Part shown: one piece after another, positions 33,169-59,795 of the stretch | Position numbering within the stretch: the first letter of the stretch is position 1 | Layout of the letters: each line of letters opens with the position of its first letter | Program-made: the position numbers and the translations under genes | DNA from: Hysterangium stoloniferum | Taxonomy: Eukaryota; Basidiomycota; Agaricomycetes; Hysterangiales; Hysterangiaceae | DNA: 64,000 nucleotides | NCBI GenBank assembly: GCA_015178975.1 | Contig: WHVD01000005.1 | Span: forward strand, 1,054,001 to 1,118,000 | Direction of reading: 5' to 3' | Notes under the pieces: generated by a model | Told to the model about the DNA's origin: nothing | What the model saw: the letters and a program-made list of their open reading frames with translations, nothing else | Database searches by the model: none

Positions 33169-36100
33169 AGGTAGGCGTCACTTTAGTTCAGCACCTGTTT
33201 ATGTAAGCAAAAAAGTGACCTACTCGCACTCCTTTCTGTGCTTCCACAACATAGATAATCTGTAATTAAAACCCAGGGAAGTGGAGTTGGGATCCATTCC
33301 TCCAGTTCTCAGGTTTAAAACTTGAAAAATAATTCACCCTTGCCAAGTAGTAGGACTTACAAATTTTAACTTTTTTTTTGAGTCTCTGAATGCTTAAAAA
33401 CTCGTTTCCATGTGATTCTGAGATTTTCAAAATTTCGCAAGTGTCAGTATTGGCCGCTTACATAATCATCACGTGATATATTGGGCAGCCTTGTTTTAAG
33501 GGCCTAAAATTGGGAAAGAAAACTGTATTGAATTCAAATATATGTACTTATCTTACTACATAAAAATTCTCCTAAGAAAAAGAGGGTATAGCTGCACATG
33601 TACTTGTGCAGTAAGCTGTGCACTTGATCACAGGCCACATTACATAAGCAGTGCAGTGGCAAATGTGCAGTTGCACAGTTCTACTACCATGCCTTAGAAG
33701 TCTAAAGCTGCACAATCTCGCATCAAAAACCTTGGATCCAAGGCACAACAAAAGCCCTCAGTGACAATCAAGGATGTCCCAGATGATGATGACTTCAATT
33801 GCAAACCAGTTTCTCTCAATCTAGATCAAAGCAATGAAAGGATGTATGAGGAAGCATTTATTGTGGATGAAGAAGATGGATCTCTCACCTTGGTAGGCTT
33901 TCTTGATGACTTTGAGGAAGAACCTCTACTAGATCTTGCTCATGATTTGGACTCGGATGATGAAAATGATGAAAATCCTAGAGATAATTATCCAGAGATT
34001 CAAGAACTCTCTGACCTGGAACAGTTCTCAAGGATACTTGCTGAGGCACAGAGGATAGCAGTTGAGGCTGAAGATGAGAGGTTAAAGGAAAACAGGCGAC
34101 CAAAGAAATATCTCAAAAACTCTGCACGAACAAAATGAAGGCATAAACAGATTGGAAAGGACCTAGAGAAGCAAGGTTACCTTTCCATTAGGACATGGTT
34201 TGCAAAAGCCAATGCTGCAGAGAGTGAGGTTAATGAGGTTGCTAGGGGGCAGAATTCTGAGTCAGATGTGGAAATGGCCACCCTTGACAAAGATCAAGAG
34301 AACATATCTGCTGGAAAAAGCGACTCAGTGAGTTTGATCTTATGGACTGCTATGGTTATTGTTCTACTGACCAAATATTATTAGTCAATTGAAGAAATTG
34401 AAAGACAGGTTAACACTGAAATATATCTACCTTCCAAAGCTCATGAAAAGGTTGAAGAGCTCCTTCAGGCACTACGAGAAGGCCAAAAACCTGGGGACAA
34501 CACTCTATCCACAGAATCTGATATCATACTGGATCAATTAAATTACAAGGACTTACCAAAGCTTCGGCAAGCCTGTGCAGCACTGACTATGAAGAGCAAA
34601 GATAAGAAAATTGATGTTCTCTTTCGAGGACGGCTTACTGGGATGGTTGGGACATTGAACCTTTATCTTGACCCACAGCTCTCATATACCTGGCGTGAGG
34701 CTTCTCTTATTGCATCAAAATCACAAAGCCATGGAGTTAGCCATGCACGCAATCTGCGAACATGGATACATCAGTTCCTGGGTTCTGGAAAATTACCTCT
34801 TCACAGATATGGAAAGCTACGGGGTACCCTTCTTGATGATGAGGACTTTTCACAAGCAATACAGATTCACCTGTCTGGAATTGCCAAGAACAACTATATC
34901 CAAGCTCAGGATATTGTTGACTTCATGCAGACACCAGAAATGCAAGAAAGGCTTGAGGAGATTGGTTCCAATAAAAAGAAGATATCAATATGTACCACAC
35001 AACGGTGGCTCCACAGGATGGGATGGCGATATGGGAGGAAAAGGAATGGTATGTATGTTGATGGCCATGAGAGGGAAGATGTTGTCAAATACTGGATGGA
35101 ATTTATTGAACGGTGGAAAGTCTATGACAAGCGGATGTATTCATATGATAATGATGGAAACCGCGAAGGTGAACTCACTGGATTCCCTGTCCCACCTGGC
35201 CAACATTTCCAGCTCATTCTTATCACCCATGATGAATCAACATTTTATGAGACTGACCGTCAAAAAACCATGTGGGCCCATCAATCAGATAAAGCAGTCC
35301 CATTAAAGAAGGGGGAAGGTGTTTCTCTCATGGTCTCAGATTTTTTGACCGTTGAATGGGGAAGATTGCAAAGTGAGGATGGCATGGAGTTAATCTTGCA
35401 CTCTAAATTTAGAATTACTATTTAATCTATGAAATGCAGGTCAGCACGTATTGTCTTCAAAGCAGGAAAAAATCGTGATGGCTACTTCTCATCTGATGAC
35501 TTGATCACACAAGTTGACACAGCCATCAATATTTTTGAAGGATGGACAAATGGGTTTGCAACAGGTCTGTTCATTTTTGATAATGCACCGAGCCATCAGA
35601 AGCGTGCAGATGATGCACTTTCTGCAAGAAAGATGCCAAAGTATCCATCTGCAACCTGGGTTCATCGCAAAGGAGGCTCTCACATGCGAAATACTGTGTT
35701 ATCAAATGGAGACACCCAGTCCTTTTATTTCGAAGAGGACCACCCTACAATGCCTGGATGGTTTAAAGGGATGGAACAAATCATCCAGGAACGAGGCCTA
35801 TGGAGGGAAAGTGGCTTACTTGCACAATGTGAAGGTTTTAAATGTATACAAGGAAAAACTGACTGTTGCTGCCGTCGCCTTCTTTTTACCCAACCAGACT
35901 TTGTGGCACAAAAATCTCAACTTGAAGAGTTCATCACATTGTGGGGTCACATCTGTGACTTCTACCCAAAATATCACTGCGAGCTTAATTTTATTGAGCA
36001 GTATTGGGGTGCAGCAAAGTTCCATTACCGAAACACCCCCAAAACCAATAACATTGTTGAGATGGAAAAGAATATGCTTACATGCTTGGATGATATCGCT

Positions 36101-36456
36101 TTGCTTCAAATCAGAAGGTATTTCTCTTATCCTTCTGCCCACTATCTGATCTCATTGTTTTCCCATGCTAGATATGCAAATAGGTCTGCCCGGTTCATAT
36201 CAGGTTATGATCTCGGACTGTCAGGAGTGGAGACTGCATAGGTCAACAAAAGATACCATGGCCATCGTACATTACCTCCAATCATGCTTGCACAAGTATG
36301 GCAAGCTCAAATTAATATGCCTGTACCATTATAGTGACTCCAATTCATTTTTTGACTTTGTAATAAATTTTTCAAAAATTTGATTCGCAAATTTGGCCGC
36401 TCTTGGCACTTAGTAATATGATTACATAAGGTGCTGAATTAAAGTGACGCCTACCT
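33169..36456 (+). mobile_element. Tc1/mariner (IS630-type) DNA transposon, copy 1
   Basis: The element is 3288 bp with 28-bp terminal inverted repeats (aggtaggcgtcac...cagcacct, one mismatch between ends) flanked by TA on both sides. The target is the alpha LTR: the uninterrupted copy at 58.9-59.8 kb reads across the site with a single TA. The flanks, the TA duplication and the DDE motifs agree with Tc1/mariner. The right TIR is at 36429-36456. Confidence 0.93.
33689..36310 (+). pseudogene. DDE transposase of transposon copy 1, lightly damaged
   Basis: The parts in order are an acidic N-terminal region (33.76-34.14 kb, with LDSDDENDENP), a linker, a block starting FRGRLTGMVGTLNLYLDPQL, helix-turn-helix-like segments (NLRTWIHQFLGSGKLPLHRY and CTTQRWLHRMGWRYGRKRNG) and the catalytic core. 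The DDE residues lie in LILITHDESTFYET (35.23 kb), LFIFDNAPSHQKR (35.58 kb) and YHCELNFIEQYWGAAKF (35.98 kb), the D...DNAPSH...NFIE..W pattern of IS630/Tc1. Likely introns lie at about 34.33-34.38, 35.38-35.45 and 36.12-36.17 kb. An in-frame TAG is the third codon after the ATG at 33689, and a TGA occurs at 34136, so the gene is probably inactive even if spliced. Confidence 0.8.
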
Positions 36457-37438
36457 TATGTCCATCTTTGTCCTATGCATCAGTCACCGGACCCCGCTCA
36501 GAATCCTGTCACTGCTCTAATCGAGCCCCGTTCCCGTTTTAGTCAAATGACCTGTCACGATTTGTACTCTGCTCCCGCTCTGTTTCCCATTAAGGGTTAT
36601 GCTTTGTTACGATTCAGACTCCGCTCCATTCCATCCTGTTCCTAACACCAATTTGGTGTTTACTATTCCCGTTTTATGTTTTGCTCACTTCGTTTCATTA
36701 TTACTGGATTCAGTATGACATTTACTCCATGGTCTATTTAAACTGGCAGATGTTGTACATACAATCCAGTCAGAAAATTAGCTTAGATTCCCCCCAGTAA
36801 TCTAATACATTTTCTGCTCTAAAACCCAACTTGATTCACACTGCTTGCACTAGTCGGAGCCCACGGGCTCTGGTATATCTATCTCTCTCACCAGTCTCAA
36901 CTCACGACCCACAACCTCCGACTTACGACTTACGACCCATGACCCCTGCCCAGACTCCCTGGGATTCCCGTCTGCCTGTCTGAAATTGGACAACACGATC
37001 TAGTGAGGGTGCAGCCTATAAGCTGAAGCCAAGTCCTACCGGATATTCTGTGGGTTTCTCCGGAGACCCGCCCTGTACGTATCCTAATAGCTGATCAGAG
37101 AAGTGAAGTGTAGAATGGATCAAAAGGAAGTGATGACAAGGTGGGGAGATATGTATAGAAACTAATGTATGATACTAAGAAACAATACTAGGTGGCAAAT
37201 AAGAGTATACATGGAGATGGAAATGGAGGAATGGGTGGAGTAGAGATGGAATGGGACAGGGGTGTACTATAAACAAGTATTGGGGGTGCCACAAGGGGTA
37301 ATGATGTAGGTGGGGGCTCCAATAGTGAGACAATGAGGGTTTTCTAGTAAGAAATGAATCATAGGGGTCCAAATGATGGGATCCTAACAAGGCTACTGTA
37401 AGGTATCCGGCTATTTACTCTCTCAAATAATTAACAAA

Positions 37439-44215: not shown

Positions 44216-44760
44216 AAATCTAAAGTGGTCATCAGTCTCAAGAGTTAATGAAAACAGATGTCCAACAAGTGCCAATATGGCAGTCAGTTCCTACATATAT
44301 AGTATATATCATTAGTTCACAGTCACACCTGACAAAGATGCCTTCTCTGACAGACACACCTTCCCTGACAGAGATGCCTTCCCTGACAGAGATGTCTTCC
44401 CTGACAGAGATGTCTTCCCTGACAGAGATGCCTTCCCTGACAGAGACACTTTTTGATGTTTATGAACCAATCAAATGATTATTATTGTTCTAATGCTTGG
44501 GTTGACCTTATTCAGCAAGCTTTTTTGTGGGTTGGGAAGTCCTAAAGAACTCAGCTTTAACAAAAACTTGGTCACCAATTTTAAAATCAGGTGCCTGGAA
44601 ATATCAGCAGTCTGCTGATTTCTGGATATATGCTTGAGTGTTGAGTATGGACTGCCAAAGAGTGTGGTTAAGTTCATATATATCAGTGACAAACTCCTGG
44701 GCACAAGTAGAGGCCATATCATGTTCTGGATAGACCATGATATTGGAATTATAAGTTTTT
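44216..44760 (+). mobile_element. retroelement 3' internal tail with 18-bp repeats
   Basis: It is the same as 45.48-45.78 kb and, reversed, 41.44-41.77 kb, but expanded by about seven 18-bp units (ccttccctgacagagatg) at 44340-44455. The other copies have one to three units, so the unit number changed after duplication. Confidence 0.65.
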
Positions 44761-45783
44761 CACTAGGGAATGTTGTTTAGAATCCTGCCACAGACCATGA
44801 GGTTGGGCTTGCTGAGGCATACAAAACTGCCCTCATCTTCTGCTGTGCACCCAGTTCTGTTGGGCCACCATGGCTGCAAGCCTTTCAAGCCAATATCCAG
44901 CAGAACCTTCAACAATTCTAACAAAACTTTCAGAAAATGGCACATGATCTTGCAGGAATTCATAACGACATTGTGGGAATTTGTAACAACACTGCATTAC
45001 TTTGACAAGAGCAGCCAATTCTGCTTGCCAATAGTCAGGCTGGCATCAAAGGACCACTTTACAACCCTGTGCAAAATGGATGGGTCCTCTTTGCTGCACC
45101 CAACCCTGCAAGTTGAGATGAGTTGCTGACCTTCACATATAAGTAGCATGTGCTGACTATACACCTTGCTTTACTGAATCCCCTATTCTAGAACTCCAAT
45201 GTATAGTATCAGTTAATGTACTGGGCCTTTCACCTCCCCATACCCTAATCATTGATTGTAGATGACAGATTGCTACCCACATTGGGGTTACAATTTAAGT
45301 TATGGTAAAATGGTGTGTTAAATAGTCACAATCACTGATATCATGATGCAAGGTGATGACAAGGCTCCTTCTTCTTTGGTACTTAACATTATCTTCCTTG
45401 GGCTCTTGATGTAAGTAATATTTTGAACCTTTCTCTTGAGAGTTATCTGAATGTTATAAAATTAATTAAAGTATATCATAATTACTGAGTCTAAAGTGGT
45501 TATCAGTCTCAGAGTTAATGAAAACAGATGTCCAACAAGTGCCAATATGGCAATTGGTTCCTATATAGTATATATCATTAGTTCACAGTCATATCTGACA
45601 AAGACGCCTTCCCTGATAGAGACGCTTACTGATGTTTATGAACCAACCAAGTGATTATTATTGTTCTAATGCTTGGGTTGACCTTATTCAGCAGGCTTTT
45701 TTGTGGGTTGGATAGTCCTAAAAAACTCAGCTTTAACAAAAACTTGGTCACCAATTTTAAAATCAGGTGCCAGGAGATGTCAG
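44761..45783 (+). mobile_element. retroelement internal fragment, right arm (outer)
   Basis: This is another copy of the Gln-rich coil region and downstream tail, running directly into LTR-A at 45784. It is the best mirror partner of 41.43-42.45 kb. Confidence 0.65.
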
Positions 45784-46129: not shown

Positions 46130-46470
46130 TCATCACAAAGGTGTGTGACAGTCACAAGGTGTAACAGTCACAAGGTGCACAACAGTCACAAGGTGCACAA
46201 CAGTCACAAGATGCACAACAGTCACAAGGTGCACAACAGTCACAAAGGTGCACAACAGTCACAAAGGTGCACAACAGTCACAAGGGTGCGCAACAGTCAC
46301 AAGAGTGCACAACAGTCACAAGGATGCGCAACAGTCACAAGAGTGCACAACAGTCACAAGGGCACGCAACAGTCACAAGGGCAGACAACAGTCACAAGGG
46401 CATACAACAGTCACAAGGGCAGACAACAGTCACAAGGGCATACAACAGTCACAAAGACATGTAATAGTCA
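46130..46470. repeat. minisatellite in right LTR-A
   Basis: About eighteen units of 18-19 bp (cacaaggtgcacaacagt and variants). It is longer than the left array. The frames that read NSHKGAQQSQ arise from the repeat and are not taken as a protein. Confidence 0.93.
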
Positions 46471-46798
46471 CAACATACATACGTGCACAGGCACAAGAGC
46501 ATTAAATCATCATGTACAGTATGCTACTGCAGAAAAAACCAGAAACTCCTGGAACATTCCAGTGGCTTCCAAAGGAACAGTAAATAATAAGTACAAATAG
46601 TAGATAGAATATTGTAGAATATTCTACATATAAGATTCTAGAATATTCTATTATGCCAAGAACATTCTATAATGTCTTAGAAGTAGTTAGAATCTTCCAC
46701 AATGCTCTAGAAAATTCTAAATGACATCATTCCTCCCAGAATGACATCATTCAATCTTCTAGAATCTTCTAAATGTCTCAGATTAAAATGTATATAAG

Positions 46799-47277
46799 TG
46801 TGAAGAGTGGTATAAGTTCTGACCATTCTATGTACGAAGAAATGAGTAGGAAGGAAGAATATTAACCTATTCGGTGCAATATAAGAGAAAGTGAGAGAGA
46901 GAGCACGAGATGACACAGTAGTCAAAGAGTGCGATGGATCGAGTGGAGGCCTCGACTGTTACAGTTCAAGGCCAGAAGTGTTACATAGTTCAGATATTGC
47001 TACCTATGTAGTAGCTAACACGTTACCCTGATCACCACTCGTAGTAGACCTAGTTTATGTCTTACGAGTGGTGATTCTTGGGTAAAAGTGTGTCTGAGTT
47101 TCATTTGATGCCAAGTGCACCCACAAGTACATATACACAATGCTTCGAACTAATGAAATGATGCAATATTTGAAGAATATAAAAGATAGCAAAATATGAA
47201 TAGAATGTGTAAAATATAAATAAAATAAAAGGAGTGTTTTACCACAATGAAACTGTGGTAAAAGCATACTCCTCACA
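46799..47277. mobile_element. solo LTR (family zeta), 479 bp
   Basis: The ends are tgtgaagagtgg and cctcaca, with the target duplication ataag at 46794-46798 and 47278-47282. It is inserted in LTR-A just after its TATA-like motif. Confidence 0.85.
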
Positions 47278-48341
47278 ATAAGGAGCTCAGCTCCAGCCTT
47301 GAATAAAACATCTGGGTGTTTAACTGATAATGCTCTATTTACATCAACAGGTGTCAAATTCAAGTTGCCTAATGGTACTCTATTTGGAGAAGGCCAAAAG
47401 GTCGGGTGCATATACCAAATGAAGGCACAAATCAATATGAGTGCCAAACCAAGTAAATTTGCCACAATTGCCAAAATGCACACTTGGGACAAATGGCACA
47501 GGATACTTGGCCATATCAGTGTTGGAGCAGTCAATTTATTAAAGAAAAATAAATTAGTTACAGGACTACAGGTGGACAAAACACAGGAATTTACTTAATG
47601 CAAGGCTTGCATACAAGGAAAGGCACATGTGGAGCCATTTCCAAAACAGGCTGAAGACTCTGTAAGTGATATAGGCAAATTAACCATATTTGATGTATGG
47701 GGACCAGCTGCAACTAAAGGACCAAATCACAAGAAATATTTTTACTCATTCACAGATATTAAAACAAGACACAGTGTTTTATTTATGGACACATCAAAGG
47801 ACCAGGCCCTGAAACACTTCAAAACATACAAGGTGTTTGTTGAAAATCAAATAAACAAGAAATTAAAGTGTATTAGGACAGATAACAGTGGTGAATATAC
47901 TAGTAAACTATTCAAAGACTTTTGCACAGAGGAGGAATAATTACAGAAACCACAGCATCTTATTCCCCTGCCCAAAATGGGATAGCCAAGCAGTTAAATT
48001 GCACAATAGTTGAACATGTGAGGGCCATGATATATGTATGTGAAGGATTTACCAAAAACCTTATAGCCAAAATGGGATAGCTGTTAGGGCAACACTAACA
48101 AGGCTACCAAACACAAGATAGAATATAGAAATATAAAGTGAGGAGGGGACAGTTCAATGACAGGAGAGATCACACTTGTTTTAGTAAGATTCCTAAGAGA
48201 TTGAAACTAAAGACTAGCTACATATGTACATGCCCCCTATTTATACTATTTATTTATTATTTATGAGAAATTAAAAGAAAATGCATATACATATGCATTG
48301 CTATTGAGAAAACTGTCACTTTGATGCCTAACTGGCATCTT

Positions 48342-50170
48342 TGTAAGCCTGGTGCCCCACATTCTCCTTTTGTTTCACTCTTTTGTGCCACTCTTTTGTG
48401 CCACCCCTTTTGTTCTAGCATGTGATCACAGCACATACATATAAGCCTAGGTAATTTTTCTTTCTCTTATCTTACCATATGCTGCATCTGTCTGTATCCT
48501 GTTCTTATTCTGGACAATACACCATGGTCCTGTCAACTCGTGTGACCGCCAGTGATCCCAATTGACGACGGGATTACACTTTTTTTTTGACACCGACCAC
48601 TTCTTACTACTTCCTTCATTCTGGACGACACCACTGTACCTCGGTTCACTCGTCAGACCGCCCGCTCACATTCCCTAGCACTCCACACTCCCTTGTCTCT
48701 TCCCAAGAGACGTCAACCCCTGTTGGCACCCGTACTTCTCCAATTGGACGACAATGACGACTGTGACACATCAACCATGGCATCAAAAATTGTCACCCCG
48801 TTTGCTGGCCCTCTCATGCCAACTGCTATTGAAGCTTGGCTTGGCCAGTGTGAGGATGGGTTTGCTATATATGCCTCTACAAAAACTGAGAAGGCCCCAG
48901 ACCTGTCCATTGAGACCAAGATCTGACTTGCAGGTACCAACATGCAGGAGTTGACAATGGCCGCCTGGTGGAATGCTGGCCGCACAGAGTATTTGAGGTT
49001 GACATCATGGGAGAGCTTCGAGAAGCAGATTCGGAACTGCTTCATGCCCAAGGGCTACAAGATGGTCACTCTCGGCACATTTTTTTTTTTGTGCACTCAA
49101 AATCAGCAGCCATTTTTGGATTATACAGCCAGTCTTGCAGATGCTCGCACTGCATTAGGACCCACTATTATCACCAGCAACATCTACAAGTACCAACTTC
49201 TTTTCCATTCCCATCCCATGCTCCTCCTTCATATCATGGCCATCCCTGAATTCAACCTTGAGGACATCACCTTCGACAATCTCGTTGCCCTCATGTCCAT
49301 GCAGTGGGAGAGCCTAATCATGGAGATCCCTGCTGCTACTCGTTCGACCCTTAGACCCAACCCCGCTCATGCTTCATCAACCACCACCAGCATTACACCC
49401 CCTCATCGCAGTCCACTTAGTATTACTGAGCGTGAACATCTTTTGACAGCTGGAGGGTACTGGAGATGCCAGAAGGTCCCCACCAATGTGGGTTGGACCA
49501 CGCATGTCAGTCGCACCTGCCCCAGAGATCCCACCCAAGATGTATCCCCTGGCCCTGATTTTGTTGCCCCTGGAACACCTATCATCAAAACAGAACATAT
49601 GGGCGCTGTTTTACTGGATGCTGATGACTCCTCTGCCACATACCAGGACGATGACACAGATTTGGACATCTAGTGCCAATGTGACCACAAATCGGTTTTT
49701 TTTTAATGTTAGCTCACCTTTTAATTGCCATGTCAAATTTCCATCATCATCGCATGTTTTTCTGGACCGGGTTCACGGACTCCACCACCTGAAGTTCCAT
49801 AGGTCCACCAAGGTTGAATTTGAGGTAGTGGGTCGGCTTTTGTGTGGGGAGGGTCGTGAGTGTGACAATTTAGCCTTGCATGCATGAACTCTTTAAGTTT
49901 TAGTTATTTGGAGTAGTTGGTTTGTTTTTGTGTGGGGAGGGGTGTAAGCCTGGTGCCCCAGTCTTACGCATTCTCCTTTTGTTTCACTCTTTTGTGCCAC
50001 CCCTTTTGTTCTAGCATGTGATCACAGCACATATAAGTCTAGGTAGTTTTCCTTTCTCTTACCTTACCGTACACTGCATCTACCTGTATCCTGTTCTTGT
50101 TCTGGACAATACACCGTGGTTCTGTCAATTCGTGTGACCACCAGTGATCCCAATTGACGACAGGATTACA
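48342..50170 (+). mobile_element. gag-only non-autonomous LTR retroelement (TR-GAG-like)
   Basis: It has two LTRs of about 237 and 228 bp, each starting tgtaagcctggtgcccc and ending gattaca, at 48342-48578 and 49943-50170. A purine-rich tract (ggggagggg) lies directly before the right LTR. The flanks atctt and acctt are probably an aged 5-bp duplication. The interior encodes only a gag-type protein in the two frames at 48.69-49.67 kb. No protease, integrase or reverse transcriptase is present. It looks nearly complete for its type, with few breaks, and must have been mobilised by another element. Confidence 0.82.
48942..49673 (+). pseudogene. gag-like region of the nested LTR element
   Basis: The region has a capsid-like stretch (AWWNAGRTEYLRLTSWESFE, CFMPKGYKMVTLGTFF) and a C-terminal zinc-knuckle-like motif (GYWRCQKVPTNVGWTTHVSR and CP), followed by an acidic end. 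This is the layout of gag polyproteins of Ty3-type elements and their domesticated or non-autonomous kin in mushrooms. It is a fossil; upstream gag sequence begins near 48.69 kb. Confidence 0.7.
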
Positions 50171-51318
50171 ACCTTGGTGCTTGCATGTGCTGACTTTGTC
50201 TGCAGTGGCAGGGTGCATATTGGATGGCTTTAGACACACAGTGCTTTGCACTGTGTGTCAACCAGACTGTGGGCAGTGGTGGCAGCCTTACAATAGTGGT
50301 GGCTGTGATGACCTTGCAATGACGGCATCTGTGGCAACCTTGCAATGATGGCAGCTGCCTTGTGACAACAGTGGCTGCCTTGTGACAATGGCAGCTGCCT
50401 TGCAATGGTGGCACAGCCTTACAATGGCAGTGGAATTACATAATGCTGCTCGCACCTGTATCTGTGTGTAGGTGCATATATGCACCTTATAAAATATAGA
50501 AAAATATAATAAACTTAAATAAAACAAATGGCAATCATATATTATATATATTGCCCTGACAATAGCCAAGTAGTTAAATTTCACAATAGTCAAACATGTG
50601 AGGGCCATGATATATGTATGTGAAGAATTTACCAAAAACTTTATGGCCAGAAGCCATTTCATACACATACTATATCAAGAACCAATCACCTACCCAAGCC
50701 CTTGGAGCTGACATAACACCCCATGAAGTGTTTTTCAGTAAGAAACCAGATGTGTCATGATTAGAAGAATTTGGGACTAAATGTTGGATTATGGTACCTA
50801 ACAAATGGCGATCAAAATTGGATCCCAAAGTGGAAGAGTATATATGTATTCACAGGAATATCTGAGAACACTAAAGCCTGGAAATACTATAACACTAAAA
50901 CTAAATGTGTTCAAACTTCCGGGAACATTACATTTGATATTACAGATACTAAACGGTACCCAATACCTGGAGAAATGAAGGCAAGGAAATAACTACTGTC
51001 CTGCTTGAAGGGGAGAGTTTCAGTGCCAAGCAATCCAGTAGTACGGTCATCATACCAAATACATCAATTGCACCCACAGAGGCCTACATTGAAGAAGTCC
51101 CATCACAACCAGATATTCAGCCACAAGAAGCACAACATAGTTCAATAATTAATAATAGTATATACCTTACCAGACTACTGGACACTTAATAACCCAAATA
51201 CCTGGCCCAAATCAAGGTTTATAGATAAAGTAATGGTGACATGAGAAATTGTGACTCCTCCCAAGGATTACAAAGAGGCAATTTCCCAAAATGACTCACC
51301 AATATGGATGGTGGCTAT

Positions 51319-51797
51319 TGTCACGAACGTACAAGCTCAAATTTCGATAATATTCAATATTATATTTCTTCGACATTCCTTCAACTTTCCGACTCAATTT
51401 TCGACTCGACTTCTGATTCAACTATTCTTCGACAATATCTTTGACAATCTCGAATATCTTTGACTTGTCTCAGGTTGATGTCATTGATGATTTCACTTTG
51501 ATATCATATTATCATCATAGGTAAATGATATATAGTATATAAGGGCAATGATAGGAACGAAGGAAGTCAGTCAGAAAACCTGTATTATATTATATTATTA
51601 CTGTATTACATAATCGTCGAACTTTTCCGAGTTCTTCTTTGACTTATTTATTCGTGAGCCTCTGTGTCCTATCTTTGCCTCACACTTTATCAACAGGACG
51701 AATTAATACTTCGTCGAATGAGGCATCTTTATTCAATATTGTTGAATATTCTTCGATTGTTTATTCGACTTTATTGAGTAAAATTTGATTCGTGACA
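51319..51797 (+). mobile_element. solo LTR (family gamma, copy 1), 479 bp
   Basis: The ends tgtcacgaa and ttcgtgaca are a perfect 9-bp inverted pair. The target duplication is gctat (51314-51318 and 51798-51802). A TATA-like tatataagg lies near 51.54 kb. It sits in copia pol. Confidence 0.9.
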
Positions 51798-52054
51798 GCT
51801 ATGGAAACAGAAATAGAACAGCACCAACAAATTGGTACCTGGTAATTAATTGATTTACCACCTGGCAGGATAGCAATAGGATGCCATTGGGTATATACTA
51901 CCAAAACAAGCCCAGAAGGGAAATTTGAAAAGGCAAAAGGCCACTTAGTCACACAAGGATTCACATAGCATCCTGGAATAGACTATTATGAAATAACTTC
52001 ACTGGTATTTAAATTTGTGTCACTCAGAGCACTATGTAATTGTTTTGGGAACAG

Positions 52055-52443
52055 TGTAAGGGGACAAGTCATTCACACTTTATATCCCCCAGATTAGTAT
52101 CCCCCAGATTATGCTCTATTGTCTATTCCATTTTATTACCTCCCCATTACAGGACACCTTATTCTTTATAGGGTACATTGAACTGATGTATGAGGGTGCT
52201 TAAGGTGTGGGAAAACACACTGCGTGCTGTATAGCTGACATGTCACACCTGGTAGAGTTTCCTTAGACTTTTCTCTTTGGATTTCCTCTACTATGTAGGT
52301 GAGTAGATAGTTATCTTGTATTTAGTCATTTATATATATCTTTGGATTTCCTCTACTAGGTGAGTAGATAATATTTAGTCATTTATATATATCTTTGGAT
52401 TTCCTCTACTAGTGTGATATCCACTATTAGGGTTGCCCTTACA
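52055..52443. mobile_element. solo LTR (family delta), 389 bp
   Basis: The ends are tgtaaggggaca and gcccttaca, with the target duplication aacag (52050-52054 and 52444-52448). It contains three spaced copies of tttggatttcctctacta. It is inserted in the reverse transcriptase region of the copia fossil. Confidence 0.88.
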
Positions 52444-53289
52444 AACAGCCCTAAATTGGGAAATAGAATTAATGGACATTAAAGGCACATATCTGAACTC
52501 TATTCTTGAAGAAGAAATCTATATGAAACAGCTGGATGGTTTTAATGATGGAACTGGAAGAGTACTTAAATTATATAGGGTGCTCTATAGACTCAAACAG
52601 GCAGGTCATGCTTGGCATCATTGTCTAAAGAAGACATTACTCAATTTAAGATATATTCAAAGTGCCACTGATGAATGTATCTTCATCAGGATCAATGGAC
52701 CAAATATTGAGGTCATTGCAGCTTATATACATACATAGATGATCCAGGATTATTTGCAAACACACAGGAGGGCATGGCAAGAATTAAACAGGAATTAAAC
52801 AGAAATTTCACTATGACCAACTTAGGGGATATGAAAAAAATACTAGGAATACAGATACAAAGGGATTGTGAAGTTGGAATACTCAAAATATCACAAGGCA
52901 TATATATCAATGTCATCCTATCTTGTTTCCAAATACAGGATGCAAATCTAGTATTCACACCCCTTAATAAATTGACAAAGTTAACTATGCCGATACCAGA
53001 TTCCAAAAGTGAACTGGTTATCAATGAACCTTATGCAAAGGCAGTCAGATCACTCATATATGTGGCACTGGGAACTCAACCTGATATAGCATTTGCCATT
53101 CAACACTTAAGGCAATTTACAAACTTTTATTCAAATGAACATTGGATGGCCATTAAATATGTCTTAAGGTACCTTAAGGGGACCAAAGATGATGGCATTA
53201 CTTATAAATCAAGCTATCAAATTGAAATAGATATTTATGTCAATTCAGATTATGCAAATTGGGATGATGCACTATCAATTGGCAGTTAC

Positions 53290-54277
53290 TGTTAAGTGCC
53301 ATGTTGGAACCTATTCCAGAACTATCGGAAGGTCACTGGAAAGTCGAAATTATTGGATAGGGTCAGGATGTCAGCTTCAGCTTATATATGTGCTGTACCT
53401 CTATGTCACAACCATCACAAGTCACAAAACTGTCACAAATATTCAAAGGTAACTTTCGACAACTCTTTGACTCCTCAAATTCGACTCGACAAACCTGAAC
53501 ATTATTCGACAACATTGAATCTCTTCAACATGTCTCATTTCGATGTCATGTATGATTTCATTATTAGTTCATAACATACATAGTCATAACAATATGAAGA
53601 AAAGCATAAAAGGGCTACAAAAGGAGCGAGGGAGGTCAGTCGAAATATCTGTAAATTGGTGATACTAGTAATCTATCTTGTTGTAACTTCTTCGACAAAT
53701 ACTTCCATGAGTTCTCATGACTGGTAATAGCCTCTTACTTCATTGACAGGGCGAATATATACTTCATCGAACAAGGCTTTCGATTCAATCTGTAGAATAT
53801 TATTCGACTTTATTGAAGAATAATTGATTTGTGACACTCTAGGCAAATGCTTGGGAGTCCTTAATTTCAGAGATGAAAACTTACACTGGAAGATATGGAT
53901 ATTCAGAGTTCTGAAGAGTTCCAAATATTAAGCATACAGAAAGACAGAAAAGGGAATAAGAAACTAAGTTGATATCAGATCTAAAGTAAAGTACAATTCA
54001 CAGAAACTAATATAGATTATCTTGTTATTGTACTACAAATTTAGGATCATAATAAGATGAAATCAGAAGTATTCCAAAATGGGAATACAATAAGATGGAC
54101 TAGGGAAAATATTCTGAAATGGGGTTACAATAAGTAAATGAGTGAATACTTGTCAGTCAACAAATTACTAAATGTGGAACAAAGGTGAGCTCTGGAAGTC
54201 AGGGTTGGATATTGAGGTGGAGGTCAGATGTTTTGGATGGTATTGGATATTAAAGTATCTGGGAAAAGGTCATAACA
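53290..54277 (+). mobile_element. solo LTR (family beta, copy 1) with gamma LTR inside
   Basis: The ends are tgttaagtgcc and ggtcataaca, with the target duplication gttac (53285-53289 and 54278-54282). It is about 550 bp without the nested LTR at 53404-53836. The RNase H reading resumes directly after it. Confidence 0.9.
53404..53836 (+). mobile_element. solo LTR (family gamma, copy 2), 433 bp
   Basis: The ends are tgtcacaacc and tgatttgtgaca, with the target duplication ctcta (53399-53403 and 53837-53841). The unoccupied equivalent is seen in beta copy 2 near 54.52 kb (cacctctacgcaaac). Confidence 0.9.
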
Positions 54278-54412
54278 GTTACATTGTATTAATTAACAGA
54301 GGATGTGTCACTTGGAGTTTAAAGAAGCAGTGAATGGTGGCATTATCCACAACTGAGGCCAAATATACATAGGTTGGGTGGTGGAATCAGATGGTGTCAG
54401 AATGTGGAGGTC

Positions 54413-54956
54413 TGTTAAGTGCTGTGTCAGGAACTTATTCCAGAACTATCGGAAAGTCACCGGAAAGTCGGGAACTATCAGATAGGGTCAGGACATTGGC
54501 TTCAGCTTATGTACTGCACCTCTACGCAAACGCTCAAAGTCCTTAATTTCAGAGGTGAGACTTACGATGGAAGATACGGATATTCAGAGTTCCGAAGAGT
54601 TCTGAATATCGAGCGTACAGAAAGACGGAAGAAGGAATAAGAAACTAAGTTGATATCAGATTTAAGGTAAAGTACAAACTCACAGAAACTAATATAAGTC
54701 TTCTCATTATTGTACTACAAACTAAGACCATAATAAGACGGAAATAGGAGTATTTCTAAAATGGAAATACAATAAGACATATTGGAAAGACAATATTCCG
54801 AAATGGAAATATAACAGACAAATGAGTGAATACTTGTCAACGGACAAATTACCAAATGCGGAACAAGGGAAGAATGTGGAAGATACAGTAACTATGATGT
54901 TCCATAGTCAGAGATTGGAAGTCAGATATTGAAACATCCGGGAATGGGTCATAACA
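54413..54956 (+). mobile_element. solo LTR (family beta, copy 2), 544 bp
   Basis: The ends are tgttaagtgctg and gggtcataaca, with the target duplication aggtc (54408-54412 and 54957-54961). It is inserted near the end of the copia RNase H region. Confidence 0.9.
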
Positions 54957-55055
54957 AGGTCATGAATCGGATGGCATCAGAATATGGGAGTCGTGAAGGG
55001 ATAGCGGAGTCAGAAACTAGAGGTATATCTAAGTTGATATTCTGATTACTTAGTA

Positions 55056-57931
55056 AGGTAGATGACATCTATTTCCAGCACCTCATTACATAAGCCAAAC
55101 ATACACATCCTCACACTTGCTACTACATTTGCAACATTCATATTTTAACACTTGTAGTCTATAGGATCTATAGTTCACATGTATAGCAAGAGTTCCTATA
55201 AGCTATTCTCCTCCATTTATGTCCAGTACCCAAAGAGTAGCCAAACAAACCTTTTCCTATATTTTTCAACTTCTATCTATTTCTCCTGATGTTATGAGCA
55301 AAAAGGAACAACTTTCAAAAATTTGAGTCTCAACATTTGGCTACATCATGTGACCAATCACATGATATCTTGGTAGGAAGGAGGGGATGGAAATGATGGT
55401 GCATACTGTATCCTAATATGCCTCGAAGATCTAAAGCCCAGCAGGCAAAAGTACAGAATGCTGCTCAAGCATGTGAAGCATACAAACAAGCAACTGGAAA
55501 GGCTCAGAAGGTCATGGTTGAAGAAGTCGAAGATAAGGATGTCATAAGATATCATCCTGACATATGTACTCACAAGACAAGCCCACAGGAGGATCCCAAG
55601 ATTCTGGAGATCATCAATGAGTTTGTCCATATACAAGAGGACAGCTTTCTGGGCTATGACCTAGAGTTGGATGATAATGATGATGAAGATGACCTGGACC
55701 CATTGATTGAGATTCAAGAACTTACAGACCTGGAAGTGTTCATCCAGACTTTGCAGAAGGCACATGATGCTACAACCATTGCTGAGCATGAACGCTGGAA
55801 AGGGAACAAGCGACCCAGAAAATATCTGGGAAACTCAAAAAGGACACAGCGTCACATGTTGAACTAAAAGGAGCTCAAGAAGAAAGGATTCACATCAGTG
55901 ATCCAATGGCTTTCACCTGCACAAAAAATGAAGGGTGCCTCTCCCAAATGCAGCTCAAGTCAGGCAGAGCCTCATTATGTCTTCAGTGATAGCAGGTCAG
56001 ATGAAGAGATAAGAGGTTTTAAAAAAAGGGAGTATTTGATATATAATTGTTGACACCTTGACTGGTCAAGATCCCCAATGTGGAAAGAGAAACACTGAAT
56101 GGGGGTGGTGAGTCTCCTTCTCATCATCATGACAGCCCAGGAATGGTGACTGAAGAGACAGAGCCAAATGCTCTCACAGCCTTTAATGCAGGGCAGCAGG
56201 TTGAAGCAATGTTGAAGGACATTTGTGAGGGGCGAAAGCCACAGGATAACAGCATAGATACCACCTCTGACCTTGCTTTGAATCAGTTACACTATAAAAA
56301 CTTTCCTGCACTTCGATGAGCAGTGGTGAAACTTACTGTGAAGAGCCATGATAAGAAGCTTGATGTGTTCTTCCGAGCACGGATCACTGCAAAGGTTGGC
56401 ACCTTGAATCTGTATATAGATTCTGAGCTTTTGTATTCCTGGCATGAAGCCTCCCTGGTTGTGTCCAAAACACAAGGGCAAGGGAGTAATCATGGATGCA
56501 ACATCCAGACCTGGATCCATCAATTCCTGAGCTGTGGTGTATTTCCCTTCCATCGGTTTGGCCAGGCATGATCATTGATCCTAGATGACGAGGATTTTTC
56601 ACAGATGATCCAACTTCACCTCCAGAGTGTTGCCAAGGATGGGTACATCCAGGCCCAGGATATTGTTGATTTTATTGAAACACCTGAGATGCAATAGAAG
56701 CTTGAAGAGAGTGGAGCAAGAAAAAAGAAGATCTCACTGTGAACAGCCCAGTGTTGGCTACATTGGATGGGCTGGCATTATGGAAAGCAGAAGAGAGGCA
56801 TGTACTGTATATTGATGGCCATGAAAGGGAAGATGTCATCAAGTACCATAAAGGATTCATTGCATGATGGAAGGAGTATGAGAAGCGGATGGTTGTATAT
56901 GACAATAATGGCAACATTGCAAGTGTCCCGGCAGGTTTTCCTGTGGCTCAAGGTCAGCTGTTCAAGCTAGTTCTCATGACACATGATGAATCCACATACT
57001 ATGCATATGATCAATGAAAATTGAAATGGACACACAAGAGTGACAAGCCTGTCCCAGAACAGAAGGGTGAGGGGCAGTCACTGATGATTTCAGACTTCTT
57101 GACACTTGAATGGGGGCGTTTGGTCTCTGATGATGTGTGAGTTCATTTTTTTTGCCTCAAAAATGTGATTATGACCTGTAAACACAGGGAAAGTTTGCCT
57201 TCAGAGCATGAAGCCCGACTTGTCTTCAAGGCAGGGAAGAACCGCAATGGATACTTCACAGCTGAGGACTTGATCAAGCAGGTTGAGAAGGCAATCAACA
57301 TCTTTGAGAGATGCACCAAAGGGTGGGCCACAGGCCTCTTTATCTTTGACAATGCACCAAGTCATCAAAAGTGATCTGATAATGCTCTCTCTTCACGCAA
57401 AATGCCTAAGAATCCCTCAAATAGCTGGACACACTGAATAGGAGGTGCCAACATGCGAAATGGATTTTTTAATGGCAAAACCCAGGCATTTTACCATCCA
57501 GATGATCACCTAACAATGCCAGGATGGTTTAAGGTATGGAAACCATCATTAGGGAACATGGTCTCTGGCCTGCTAAAGGTCTTAAAGCCCAATGTGAAGG
57601 GTTCAAGTGTGAACCCAGGCAAACTAATTGTTGCTGTCACCACCTTCTTTTCACACAGCCTGATTTTACATCACAGAAATCTCAACTGGAAGAACTCATC
57701 ACATCGCGAGGACACATTTGCGACTTCTATCCAAAGTACCACTGTGAACTGAACTTCATTGAACAATATTGGGGGGCATCCAAATATCATTATCATTCAA
57801 TGGCTCACACTACAAAGCTTGCAGAAATGGAGAAGAATGTGCTTGCAAGCCTTGATAATGTCCCACTGCTGCAGATTCGTCGGTGTGTCCCATTTTTCTC
57901 ATTTTATCCACATGATGCTTATCAGTCTTTG
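55056..57931 (+). mobile_element. Tc1/mariner DNA transposon, copy 2, 3' truncated
   Basis: The left end (aggtagatgac...ccagcacct, next to TA) is a diverged version of the copy 1 terminal repeat. The right end is missing: alpha LTR copy 2 begins at 57932 inside the last intron of the transposase, and no transposon sequence reappears on its far side. Confidence 0.82.
55418..57900 (+). pseudogene. decayed transposase of transposon copy 2
   Basis: An intact N-terminal frame of 149 codons starts MPRRSKAQQAKVQNAAQACE and includes an acidic stretch (LELDDNDDEDDLDP). It is followed by broken frames matching copy 1 throughout. Catalytic-site sequence is still visible at 56.98 kb (MTHDESTYY), 57.35 kb (LFIFDNAPSHQK) and 57.74 kb (YHCELNFIEQYWGA). 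Several in-frame stops (for example TGA at 56317 and before the DNAPSHQK downstream region) make it non-functional. Copy 1's start region is damaged while this one is not, so the two copies decayed independently. Confidence 0.8.
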
Positions 57932-58759
57932 TGTTAGGGTATGTACACAGCGGGTTTCCGGAGAAACCCGTGGGATATCTGGTAGGACTTGGCTTCAGCT
58001 TATAGGCTGCACCCTCACAAGATCGTGTTGTCCAATTTCAGACAGGTAGACGGGAATCCCGGGGAGTCTGGGCAAGGTTCATGGGTCAAGGGGTCATGGG
58101 TCAGAGGTCGTGGGTCGAGAGGTCGTGAGTCGAGATAGATATGAGAGATAGATGCACTGGAGCCCGTGGGCTCTGACTAGTGTGAGCGGTGTGATTCAAG
58201 TAGGAGTTTAGAGTGGAAAATATATTAGATTACTGGGGGGAATCTAAGCCGATTTTCTGACTGGATTGTATGTACAACATCTGCCAGACTAAATAGACCA
58301 TGGAATGAATGACATACCAAATCCAGTAATAATGAAATGAAACTAGCAAAACATAAAACGAGAATAGTAAACACCAAATTTGGTGTTAGGAACAGGATGG
58401 AACGGAGTGGAGTCCGAATCATGACAAATCATAAACCATAATGGGAAATGGAGCGGGAGCAGAGTCCGAATTGTGACAGGTCATTTGACTAAAATGGGAA
58501 TGGGGCTCTGTCAGAGGGATGACAGGTTTTCCGAGAGGGGTCCGGTGACTGATACATGGGATGAGGTCGGACATAGACAGGGACGGAGTCCAGTGGGTAT
58601 TCCGGCGACTGAAACACAATGTAACGAAGTGAAGTCAAACGTAGACAAGTCTACATATGGAGTCTGGCAGGAATTCTGGTAAACTGACAATTGGTGTGTA
58701 TAGGGTGCAGGTGCATATAAGTTAGTGCCCAGAGTCTGGTGGGAATTCCAGTCGTAACA
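57932..58759 (-). mobile_element. LTR (family alpha, copy 2), no target duplication
   Basis: Plus-strand ends are tgttagggtatg and gtcgtaaca, with full similarity to copies 1 and 3. The flanks ctttg and catag do not match, unlike the other two copies. Confidence 0.85.
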
Positions 58760-58889
58760 CATAGGTGAGACATAGAATAAAGGGATCATCAAAGGATAAA
58801 GGGACATATCAGAGTATAACCAGATAGTACAAGTATAATTTGACAGGGCTGTAGTGGGGTTTGATTGCCGTGAGGGTGTACATCAGTGT

Positions 58890-59795
58890 TGTTAGGATAC
58901 ACACACAGGCCGGGTTTCCGGAGAAACCCACGGGATATCCGGTAGGACTTGGCTTCAGCTTATAGGCTGTGCCCTCGCTAGATCGTGTTGTCCAATTTCA
59001 AACAGACAGACGGGGATCCCGGGGAGTCCAGGTGGGGTTCATGGGTCGTAGGTCGTAAGTCGGGGGTCGTGGGTCGTAAGTCGGAGGTTGTGGGTCGTGA
59101 GTCGAGAGGTTGTGGGTCGTGAGTCGAGAGGTTGTGGGTCGTGAGTCGAGAGGTCGTGGGTCATGAGTTGAGATAATTGAGAGAGATAGATGTGCCGGAG
59201 CCTGTGGGCTCCGACTAGTGAAAGCGATGTGAATCAAGTAAGGTTTTAGAGTGGAAAATGTTATTAGATTACTGGGGGGAATCTAAGCTAATTTTCTGAC
59301 TGGATTGTATGTACAACATCTGCCAGTTTATATAGACCATGGAGTGAATGACATACCAAATCCAGTAATAACGAAACGAAACTAACAAAACATAAAACGG
59401 GAATAGTAAACACCAAATTGGTGTTAGGAACGGAACGGAACGGAGCGGAGTCCAAATCGTGACAAAGCATAACCCATAACGGGAAATGGAGCAGGAGTGG
59501 AGTCCTAAATCATGACAGGTCATTTGACTAAAACAGGAACGGGGCTCGATTAGAGTGGTGACGGGATTCTGAGTGGGGTCCAGTGACTGATGTGTGGGAC
59601 GAAGACGAACATAGACAGAGACGGAGTCCGGGGGAAGTCCGGTGACTGATATGTGTCGTAATGAGGTCGAATGTAACGAGTCTTGATGTAATGGAGTCCA
59701 GGTGGGAAATCCTATAAACAGACGATTGGTGCTTGTAGCGCGTGGGGGCATACAGGTTAGTGCCCAGAGTCCGGCGGGATTGTCCGGTCGTAACA
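58890..59795 (-). mobile_element. solo LTR (family alpha, copy 3), 906 bp
   Basis: Plus-strand ends are tgttaggatac and gtcgtaaca, with the perfect duplication agtgt (58885-58889 and 59796-59800). It retains many CpG sites, so it is probably the youngest repeat here. It has an internal short-repeat patch (gtcgtgggtcgtgagtcgag) at 59040-59165. Confidence 0.92.

What the first reader, a model, noticed from the sequence alone, without database searches (positions are those of the whole stretch)
46799..54961. Serial nesting of seven LTR-bounded insertions with readable target duplications
Within 8.2 kb, six solo LTRs from five families and one two-LTR element interrupt a copia fossil and its neighbouring LTR. 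The target duplications are ataag (zeta), atagc (epsilon), atctt/acctt (gag-only element), gctat (gamma 1), aacag (delta), gttac (beta 1), ctcta (gamma 2) and aggtc (beta 2). Nesting gives a relative order: copia before epsilon, which came before the gag-only element, and copia before beta 1, which came before gamma 2. Almost every autonomous element is reduced to a solo LTR, which suggests frequent LTR-LTR recombination in a region that attracts insertions, such as a pericentromere or other heterochromatin.
Basis: seen in the sequence. Interest (0 to 1): 0.72.

Follow-up and report, generated by a model that had tools for sequence, protein, structure and literature searches.

The report
Nested retrotransposons including a gag-only family
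A crowded stretch of a fungal genome holds eight stacked retrotransposon insertions, an ordinary kind of genomic fossil bed, but one of them belongs to a multi-copy family that keeps only the shell-protein gene and probably borrows its copying machinery from another element.

Summary
All eight units have the stated ends; seven have exact 5-bp target duplications, the gag-only element 4 of 5. Other copies end at the same borders with their own duplications, and uninterrupted host copies show empty sites for gamma 1, delta, beta 1, beta 2 and, less fully, zeta. The nesting order stands; CpG loss agrees.

Beta and delta are LTRs of gypsy elements; no full-length zeta, gamma or epsilon was found among the copies examined. 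Zeta lies beside the copia fossil, in another repeat. Conserved genes end about 15 kb away, so a pericentromere is not indicated.

The best discovery is the gag-only element. Four other copies share its architecture, each with its own exact duplication. Gag seems constrained (dN/dS about 0.15 between two diverged copies). Gag-less miniatures share its priming-side and polypurine signals; 33 of 38 priming sites pair with a polypurine site within 1.6 kb, too short for pol. It resembles gag-only retrotransposons of plants; its polymerase donor is not identified.

The parts
46478..47303 (.). Repeat in which zeta sits (matched parts 46478-46798 and 47283-47303); its left limit was not determined
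   Evidence: Matches L051 (C45) across the zeta site: joined flanks align over base 2-68 (4 gaps, 8 bases past the junction), and go on (bases 66-81) after a gamma unit present in L051
46799..47277 (.). zeta, single LTR-like unit, TSD ATAAG at 46794-46798 and 47278-47282
47332..54367 (+). Ty1/copia fossil, in pieces 47332-48081, 50562-51318, 51798-52054, 52444-53289, 54278-54367; truncated at both ends
   Evidence: RVT_2 hit; integrase and RT reading frames with stops; copies C23 and C7
47982..48072 (+). First copy of a tandemly duplicated copia segment; second copy 50562-50652 lies right of epsilon
   Evidence: 91% identity; present once in C23; the units differ at 12 of 99 aligned sites
48082..50561 (.). 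epsilon, single LTR-like unit (651 bp without the nested gag-only element), TSD ATAGC
   Evidence: right border: of 47 rows 19 epsilon rows end and 14 copia rows begin there; left border has no independent check
48342..50170 (+). gag-only two-LTR element inside epsilon, TSD ATCTT/ACCTT
48342..48578 (+). 5' LTR of the gag-only element (237 bp)
48777..49673 (+). gag frame of the gag-only element, broken by one in-frame TGA (48924-48926), ending TAG at 49671-49673; zinc-knuckle-like region near the C-terminus
   Evidence: no Pfam hit; the knuckle is my reading of the letters
49932..49942 (+). Polypurine tract GTGGGGAGGGG beside the 3' LTR
49943..50170 (+). 3' LTR of the gag-only element (228 bp)
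51319..51797 (.). gamma 1, single LTR-like unit in copia, TSD GCTAT
   Evidence: empty site in C23 copia
52055..52443 (+). delta, solo LTR in copia, TSD AACAG; carries an internal 41-bp repeat absent from the L083 LTR
   Evidence: empty site in C23 and C7 copia (4 gaps each)
53290..54277 (-). beta 1, solo LTR in copia, TSD GTTAC, interrupted by gamma 2
   Evidence: empty site in C23 and C7 copia
53404..53836 (.). gamma 2, single LTR-like unit inside beta 1, TSD CTCTA
54370..55055 (.).
54413..54956 (-). beta 2, solo LTR, TSD AGGTC
   Evidence: empty site in C323 and C544

Best explanation
This is a palimpsest of at least eight independent integrations of LTR-type elements into older repeats. 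Each made a 5-bp target duplication (shown). Beta and delta are solo LTRs, most likely left when the two LTRs of a gypsy element recombined (inferred from full-length relatives). The order is copia, then a small tandem duplication in it, then epsilon, then the gag-only element; and copia, then beta 1, then gamma 2 (shown by nesting, except that the duplication's place in the order is inferred). The gag-only element belongs to a semi-autonomous family: it encodes its own capsid-type protein, keeps LTRs, a conserved sequence after the 5' LTR and a polypurine tract, and is reverse-transcribed and integrated by enzymes supplied in trans by another LTR element not identified here (inferred). A gag-less miniature family with the same signals probably uses the same supply (inferred).
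For: Exact ends and duplications; copies with the same borders and own duplications; empty sites; gypsy relatives of beta and delta. Gag-only family: complete relatives on C346 (92%) and C544 (89%) and a partial-identity one on C104 (74%); with C7 they have exact own duplications GTAAA, ATTTC, GTTTA, GCGCC. Open gag on C104 (318 aa) and C346; dN/dS 0.149 between them. Tract-LTR junction 85 times, reversed control 0, with a gag match within 1.5 kb upstream at 21 of 85 and at 57-350 bp in 18 of those 21. Priming-side junction 38 times, control 0; 33 of 38 pair with a tract at 440-1595 bp. Pol probes found no match at E 0.1 or better in 16 loci.
Against: The window's gag is itself broken. The trans-supply is not shown and no partner with both signals was seen, though patterns were near-exact and a diverged partner would be missed. 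64 of 85 tract junctions have no gag match nearby, and 8 such upstream or downstream stretches at most were read (L086-L093). Two pol-probe matches of 20-25 residues at E 0.13 and 0.65 (L091, L088) were taken as chance. dS near or above 1 makes the 0.149 approximate; ratios within the C346 group are 0.32-0.62. The sequence after the 5' LTR does not look like a usual tRNA-complementary site. Epsilon's 5' border and the empty sites of epsilon, gamma 2 and the gag-only element were not verified; the joined epsilon flanks do not align as one piece in C23.
Confidence: 0.85

Rival explanations
1. The gag-only copies are separate deletion or decay products of ordinary gypsy elements and not a family that spread in that form.
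For: The window copy is broken; many gag matches are fragments.
Against: Five copies (window, C346, C544, C104, C7) have the same layout and own duplications, and 6 of 33 paired signals cluster at 1290-1595 bp with none longer. Gag dN/dS is about 0.15 between diverged copies.
Confidence: 0.1
2. Zeta and gamma (and perhaps epsilon) are not solo LTRs of autonomous elements but short stand-alone elements with LTR-like ends and 5-bp duplications.
For: No full-length copy was seen: 0 of 5 gamma and 0 of 1 zeta copies without a duplication share internal sequence, against 9 of 11 beta. Termini are inverted over about 8-11 bases (read). The C4 zeta pair 6.1 kb apart shows no pol match.
Against: Only 11 zeta and 31 gamma copies were examined, of 1712 and 1037 first-look candidates; sizes, TG...CA ends and 5-bp duplications are usual for LTRs. 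Old families can persist as solo LTRs alone.
Confidence: 0.2
3. The cluster marks a pericentromere or other heterochromatin that attracts insertions.
For: Eight insertions in 8.2 kb; strong CpG loss in the older units.
Against: PPR, GDC-P, IMPDH, SUR7, EF-G and Chromosome_seg/DUF4210 genes lie at 1-31.5 kb. No genome-wide density comparison or chromatin data were available.
Confidence: 0.12
4. The nest is an assembly artefact.
For: Repeat-rich sequence in a 554-contig assembly.
Against: Each junction has its own duplication and host sites are continuous without the insert elsewhere; the contig is 1.75 Mb.
Confidence: 0.02

Closest known systems
RLG_Quinta of wheat with partner RLG_Cereba (PMC11302176, passages seen)
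   Same: LTR element that encodes Gag and lacks RT and integrase; proposed to contribute Gag and to be mobilised in trans; diverged gag lineages
   Different: There the partner is known by shared LTR ends, priming site and tract, and Quinta carries a further domain (DUF1). Here no partner was found, the host is a fungus, and gag-less miniatures share the signals
RLG_Kyoko of the lichen alga A. mediterranea (PMC12542154, passages seen)
   Same: Non-autonomous LTR element encoding only Gag
   Different: Kyoko is centromere-specific with an identified partner, RLG_Beelzebufo; neither was shown here
TR-GAG elements of plants (named in papers listed; the original description was not held)
   Same: Terminal repeats around a gag only
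   Different: Described in plants; the searches listed no fungal report
TRIM elements, reported in three of five Boletales genomes together with LARD (PMC5689174, passages seen)
   Same: Short non-coding LTR elements in basidiomycetes
   Different: The miniatures here share signals with a gag-only family; the paper's passages do not describe such a pair
Solo LTRs of Pleurotus ostreatus (PMC4905642, passages seen)
   Same: 609 and 585 solo LTRs in two strains, attributed to recombination between LTRs
   Different: No difference in kind for beta and delta

Membership tests
Solo LTR (beta, delta) | Single LTR with target duplications at both ends | tested here: met
   Beta 1, beta 2 and delta exact; empty sites
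Solo LTR (beta, delta) | Same LTR bounds full-length elements with pol | tested here: met
   L084: beta LTRs (second one partly covered) around gypsy RT, RNase H and a chromodomain; L083: delta LTR then 760-aa gypsy pol; three delta pairs 5.5-6.2 kb apart on one strand
Solo LTR (zeta, gamma, epsilon) | Same LTR bounds full-length elements with pol | tested here: inconclusive
   None found among 11 zeta and 31 gamma copies; epsilon only by hit positions
Ty1/copia (host fossil) | RVT_2-type reverse transcriptase | tested here: met
   PF07727, 39.6 bits, cut-off 31.6
Ty1/copia (host fossil) | Own LTRs at both ends | tested here: not met
   Copia similarity stops at 47332 and 54367; both ends look truncated
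Gag-only LTR retrotransposon (TR-GAG, Quinta type) | Two LTRs, target duplication, polypurine tract, gag, no pol | tested here: met
   Window plus C346, C544, C104, C7; pol probes gave no convincing match
Gag-only LTR retrotransposon (TR-GAG, Quinta type) | The protein is a Gag | tested here: inconclusive
   Position and a C-x2-C-x11-H-x4-C stretch (my reading) fit; no Pfam hit at E 1, no solved-structure hit at E 10, fold model unusable
Gag-only LTR retrotransposon (TR-GAG, Quinta type) | Autonomous partner sharing LTR ends, priming site and tract | tested here: inconclusive
   None of 33 paired signals spans more than 1595 bp; diverged partners would be missed
TRIM (miniature family) | Short LTR element, no coding capacity, own target duplications | tested here: inconclusive
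   Internal stretches without gag or pol on C545 and C515; duplications not read

The most novel reading that the evidence does not exclude
This genome holds an old, diversified lineage of gag-only LTR elements (gag down to about 44% identity with the same gag-tract-LTR spacing, constrained where measured) that has persisted without any autonomous member of its own kind. It would supply capsids for itself and for gag-less miniatures, while reverse transcriptase and integrase come from an unrelated LTR family: a two-level dependency chain in a fungus.
Probability: 0.25. Interest if true: 0.6.

Novelty: new member of a known kind. Interest (0 to 1): 0.4.

Why it matters
Nested solo LTRs are ordinary in repeat-rich fungal genomes. 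The gag-only family bears on an open question: why an element should keep gag while doing without polymerase, and how specific the trans-supply of reverse transcriptase and integrase is. A compact set of gag carriers and gag-less elements with shared signals would make this testable outside plants and algae. The nest also gives an ordered series in which CpG loss can be checked against known order.

Tried and rejected
Structure prediction of the window's open gag fragment alone gave mean pLDDT 34.4, so no fold search was made. Pfam and solved-structure searches with gag found nothing. Long target duplications at epsilon and beta 2 were considered and rejected: the copia duplication lies outside the 5-bp duplication and is single in C23, and the repeated stretch of about 30 bp around beta 2 is also present in C323 and C544, which lack beta 2. 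My first reading of the sequence right of 54367 as copia RNase H was wrong. The C4 zeta pair 6.1 kb apart, first taken as one full-length element, shows no pol domain in the three ORFs scanned, no pol-probe match and no matching duplication. The 511-bp, 98% copy of 55054-55564 on C511 was tested as an empty site for the whole nest; it is not one, since the left side there is another repeat. LTR divergence within copies (window 15 of 219, C346 12 of 241, C544 8 of 213, C104 6 of 259 aligned sites) served only as a relative measure, with another alignment, gave 27 of 227 for the window pair. In the paper searches for gag-only or TR-GAG elements in fungi I saw no fungal case in the listings or passages; these cover open-licence papers only, most seen as listings.
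Full report
What the window is. The window is C441:1054001-1118000 of a 111-Mb assembly in 554 contigs. Open frames in its first 31.5 kb match PPR, glycine-cleavage P protein, IMPDH, SUR7, EF-G and Chromosome_seg/DUF4210 families (7 of the 10 ORFs scanned). The IMPDH fragment scores 585 bits against 4af0 and 514 against 5mcp; from memory these are Cryptococcus and Ashbya proteins, so the host is probably a basidiomycete. The species was not identified.

Checking the observation. All eight units start TG, end CA and are bordered by the stated 5-mers: seven exact, one 4 of 5. By chance an exact pair occurs at 0.00165. With overlapping loci merged and window copies left out, exact duplications flank 10 of 11 zeta, 26 of 31 gamma and 17 of 28 beta copies. 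These are copies close to the window's (8 of 40, 30 of 47 and 30 of 46 rows had been fetched as loci, plus some met by chance). Delta is supported by empty sites in C23 and C7; the one other delta copy read whole, C38, has no matching duplication.

Hosts and empty sites. The copia fossil carries RVT_2 and has 39 matches in the genome, itself included. Copies on C23 and C7 run through the sites of beta 1 (no gaps) and delta (4 gap positions each), and C23 through gamma 1 (no gaps). Copia similarity stops at 47332 on the left (C23) and 54367 on the right (C23 and C7). Beta 2 lies in another repeat: copies on C323 and C544 run through its site with a 5-bp overlap equal to the AGGTC duplication. 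Zeta lies in a third repeat, seen without zeta on C45 (L051); that match crosses the site by 8 bases before a gamma unit and then goes on, with 4 gaps. Epsilon's right border is where 19 rows of epsilon copies end and 14 rows of copia copies begin (of 47 rows). Its left border has no such check. A copia segment of about 90-100 bp lies on both sides of epsilon but once in C23, so the joined flanks do not align as one piece. As it lies outside the 5-bp duplication it should be an older tandem duplication. Its units differ at 12 of 99 sites, about the distance between copia copies (89-90% identity).

Relative age. Observed-to-expected CpG is 0.07 in copia, 0.08 in epsilon, 0.08 in delta, 0.13 in beta 1, 0.42 in the gag-only element, 0.62 in zeta, 0.86 in beta 2, 0.93 in gamma 2 and 1.61 in gamma 1, against 0.91 in the genic half. 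Each of the six inserts whose host was scored is at or above its host, as nesting predicts. Family baselines differ: median 1.06 for 31 beta copies (0.65-1.39), 1.52 for 31 gamma copies (0.49-2.03), 0.33 for the one delta copy measured. So beta 1 at 0.13 is old or from another subfamily. Between C346 and the window gag-only copy, 38 internal differences read C in C346 and T in the window (either strand), 18 of them at CpG; 30 run the other way.

Solo LTRs or not. L084 has two beta LTRs (the second partly covered) around gypsy RT and RNase H and a chromodomain; L083 has a delta LTR followed by a 760-aa gypsy pol. Three delta pairs lie 5.5-6.2 kb apart on one strand (read). As a control, 9 of 11 beta copies without an exact duplication share internal sequence beside the LTR; 0 of 5 gamma and 0 of 1 zeta copies do, and the single zeta copy gives no power. 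Zeta and gamma could be solo LTRs of families whose full-length members are rare or gone, or short elements in their own right.

The gag-only family. The element at 48342-50170 has LTRs of 237 and 228 bp, a tract GTGGGGAGGGG, and a gag frame with one in-frame stop. Relatives on C346 (92%), C544 (89%), C104 (74% from query base 94) and C7 (85%, in two pieces) have the same layout and exact duplications GTAAA, ATTTC, GTTTA and GCGCC. C104 has an open gag of 318 aa and C346 is open too; C544 and C7 are interrupted. tblastn with the C104 gag finds 89 matches, some of them pieces of one copy. A gag of 44% identity on C40 is followed after 339 bp by the same tract and LTR start. dN/dS is 0.149 for C104 against C346 (dS 1.17) and 0.32-0.62 among C346, C168, C7 and the window (my own Nei-Gojobori script). 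The C7 row includes a shifted tail, and dS above 1 is near saturation, so these are approximate; the higher ratios fit copies decaying after insertion.

Signals and miniatures. The tract-LTR junction (one mismatch allowed) occurs 85 times, 0 in the reversed control; 21 of 85 have a gag match within 1.5 kb upstream, 18 of those at 57-350 bp. The 5' LTR-priming junction occurs 38 times, 0 in the control. 33 of 38 pair with a tract on the same strand within 9 kb: 27 at 440-1041 bp and 6 at 1290-1595 bp. Two of the first group were read (C545, C515) and show neither gag nor pol; C545 matches gag-only C7 at 94-95% at both ends. Of the five unpaired sites two were read: one miniature-like (L092), one truncated (L093). 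Four other no-gag tract junctions (L088-L091, 711-871 bp each) were read. Pol and protease frames of L083 and L084 and the window copia RT, used as probes on 16 such loci, gave two matches of 20-25 residues at E 0.13 and 0.65 (L091, L088) and no others up to E 1; the same probes match each other's loci at 1e-49 or better. So no autonomous partner with these signals is visible, within the limits of near-exact patterns and of the few stretches read.

Mechanism. Shown: 5-bp target duplications, repeated nesting, a multi-copy gag-only architecture, constraint on gag between diverged copies. Inferred: Gag assembles particles, reverse transcriptase and integrase come in trans, miniatures ride on both. 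This is the model given for RLG_Quinta in wheat (PMC11302176, passages) and RLG_Kyoko in an alga (PMC12542154, passages). Non-coding TRIM and LARD elements are reported in three of five Boletales genomes (PMC5689174, passages).

Verdict. The nest is real and ordinary in kind. The pericentromere idea lacks support. The gag-only family deserves follow-up as a fungal member of a known kind; its missing partner is the open point.

Noticed in passing
window 55054-55564; L075 (C511:60824-61334): A 511-bp stretch is 98% identical to one other place, far closer than the LTR copies, with abrupt ends on both sides; an open frame of 156 aa (55397-55867) begins in it.
   Followed up: partly
window 46191-46492 and 44328-44471: Tandem arrays of 19-bp units (about 11 copies in register) and 18-bp units; the 19-bp type recurs beside the gamma unit in L051.
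   Followed up: no
window 44241-44607 and 45511-45783: Direct repeats about 1.2-1.3 kb apart (85-93% alike), possibly the terminal repeats of another short element.
   Followed up: no
window 36457-37079, 57932-58760 and 58889-59795: Related repeat units: two in tandem at the right, one inverted at the left, all with relatives in fetched loci; an ORF at 35426-36241 has a weak DDE_3 hit below cut-off.
   Followed up: no
window 52319-52412: Delta carries a 41-bp exact repeat 53 bp apart; the C38 copy matches over the whole 389 bp while most rows and L083 have a shorter LTR.
   Followed up: partly
C26:160050-161136, C301:194977-197041 and C13:881409-882838: Other places where several beta or gamma units, whole or partial, lie beside or inside each other.
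   Followed up: no
window 48342-50170; L069-L071: The last 60 or so bases of the LTR are far more alike between C104 and the other copies than the rest of the LTR, and the sequence after it (CTTTTTTTTTGACAC) does not look like a tRNA 3'-end complement (the last point is my judgement).
   Followed up: no
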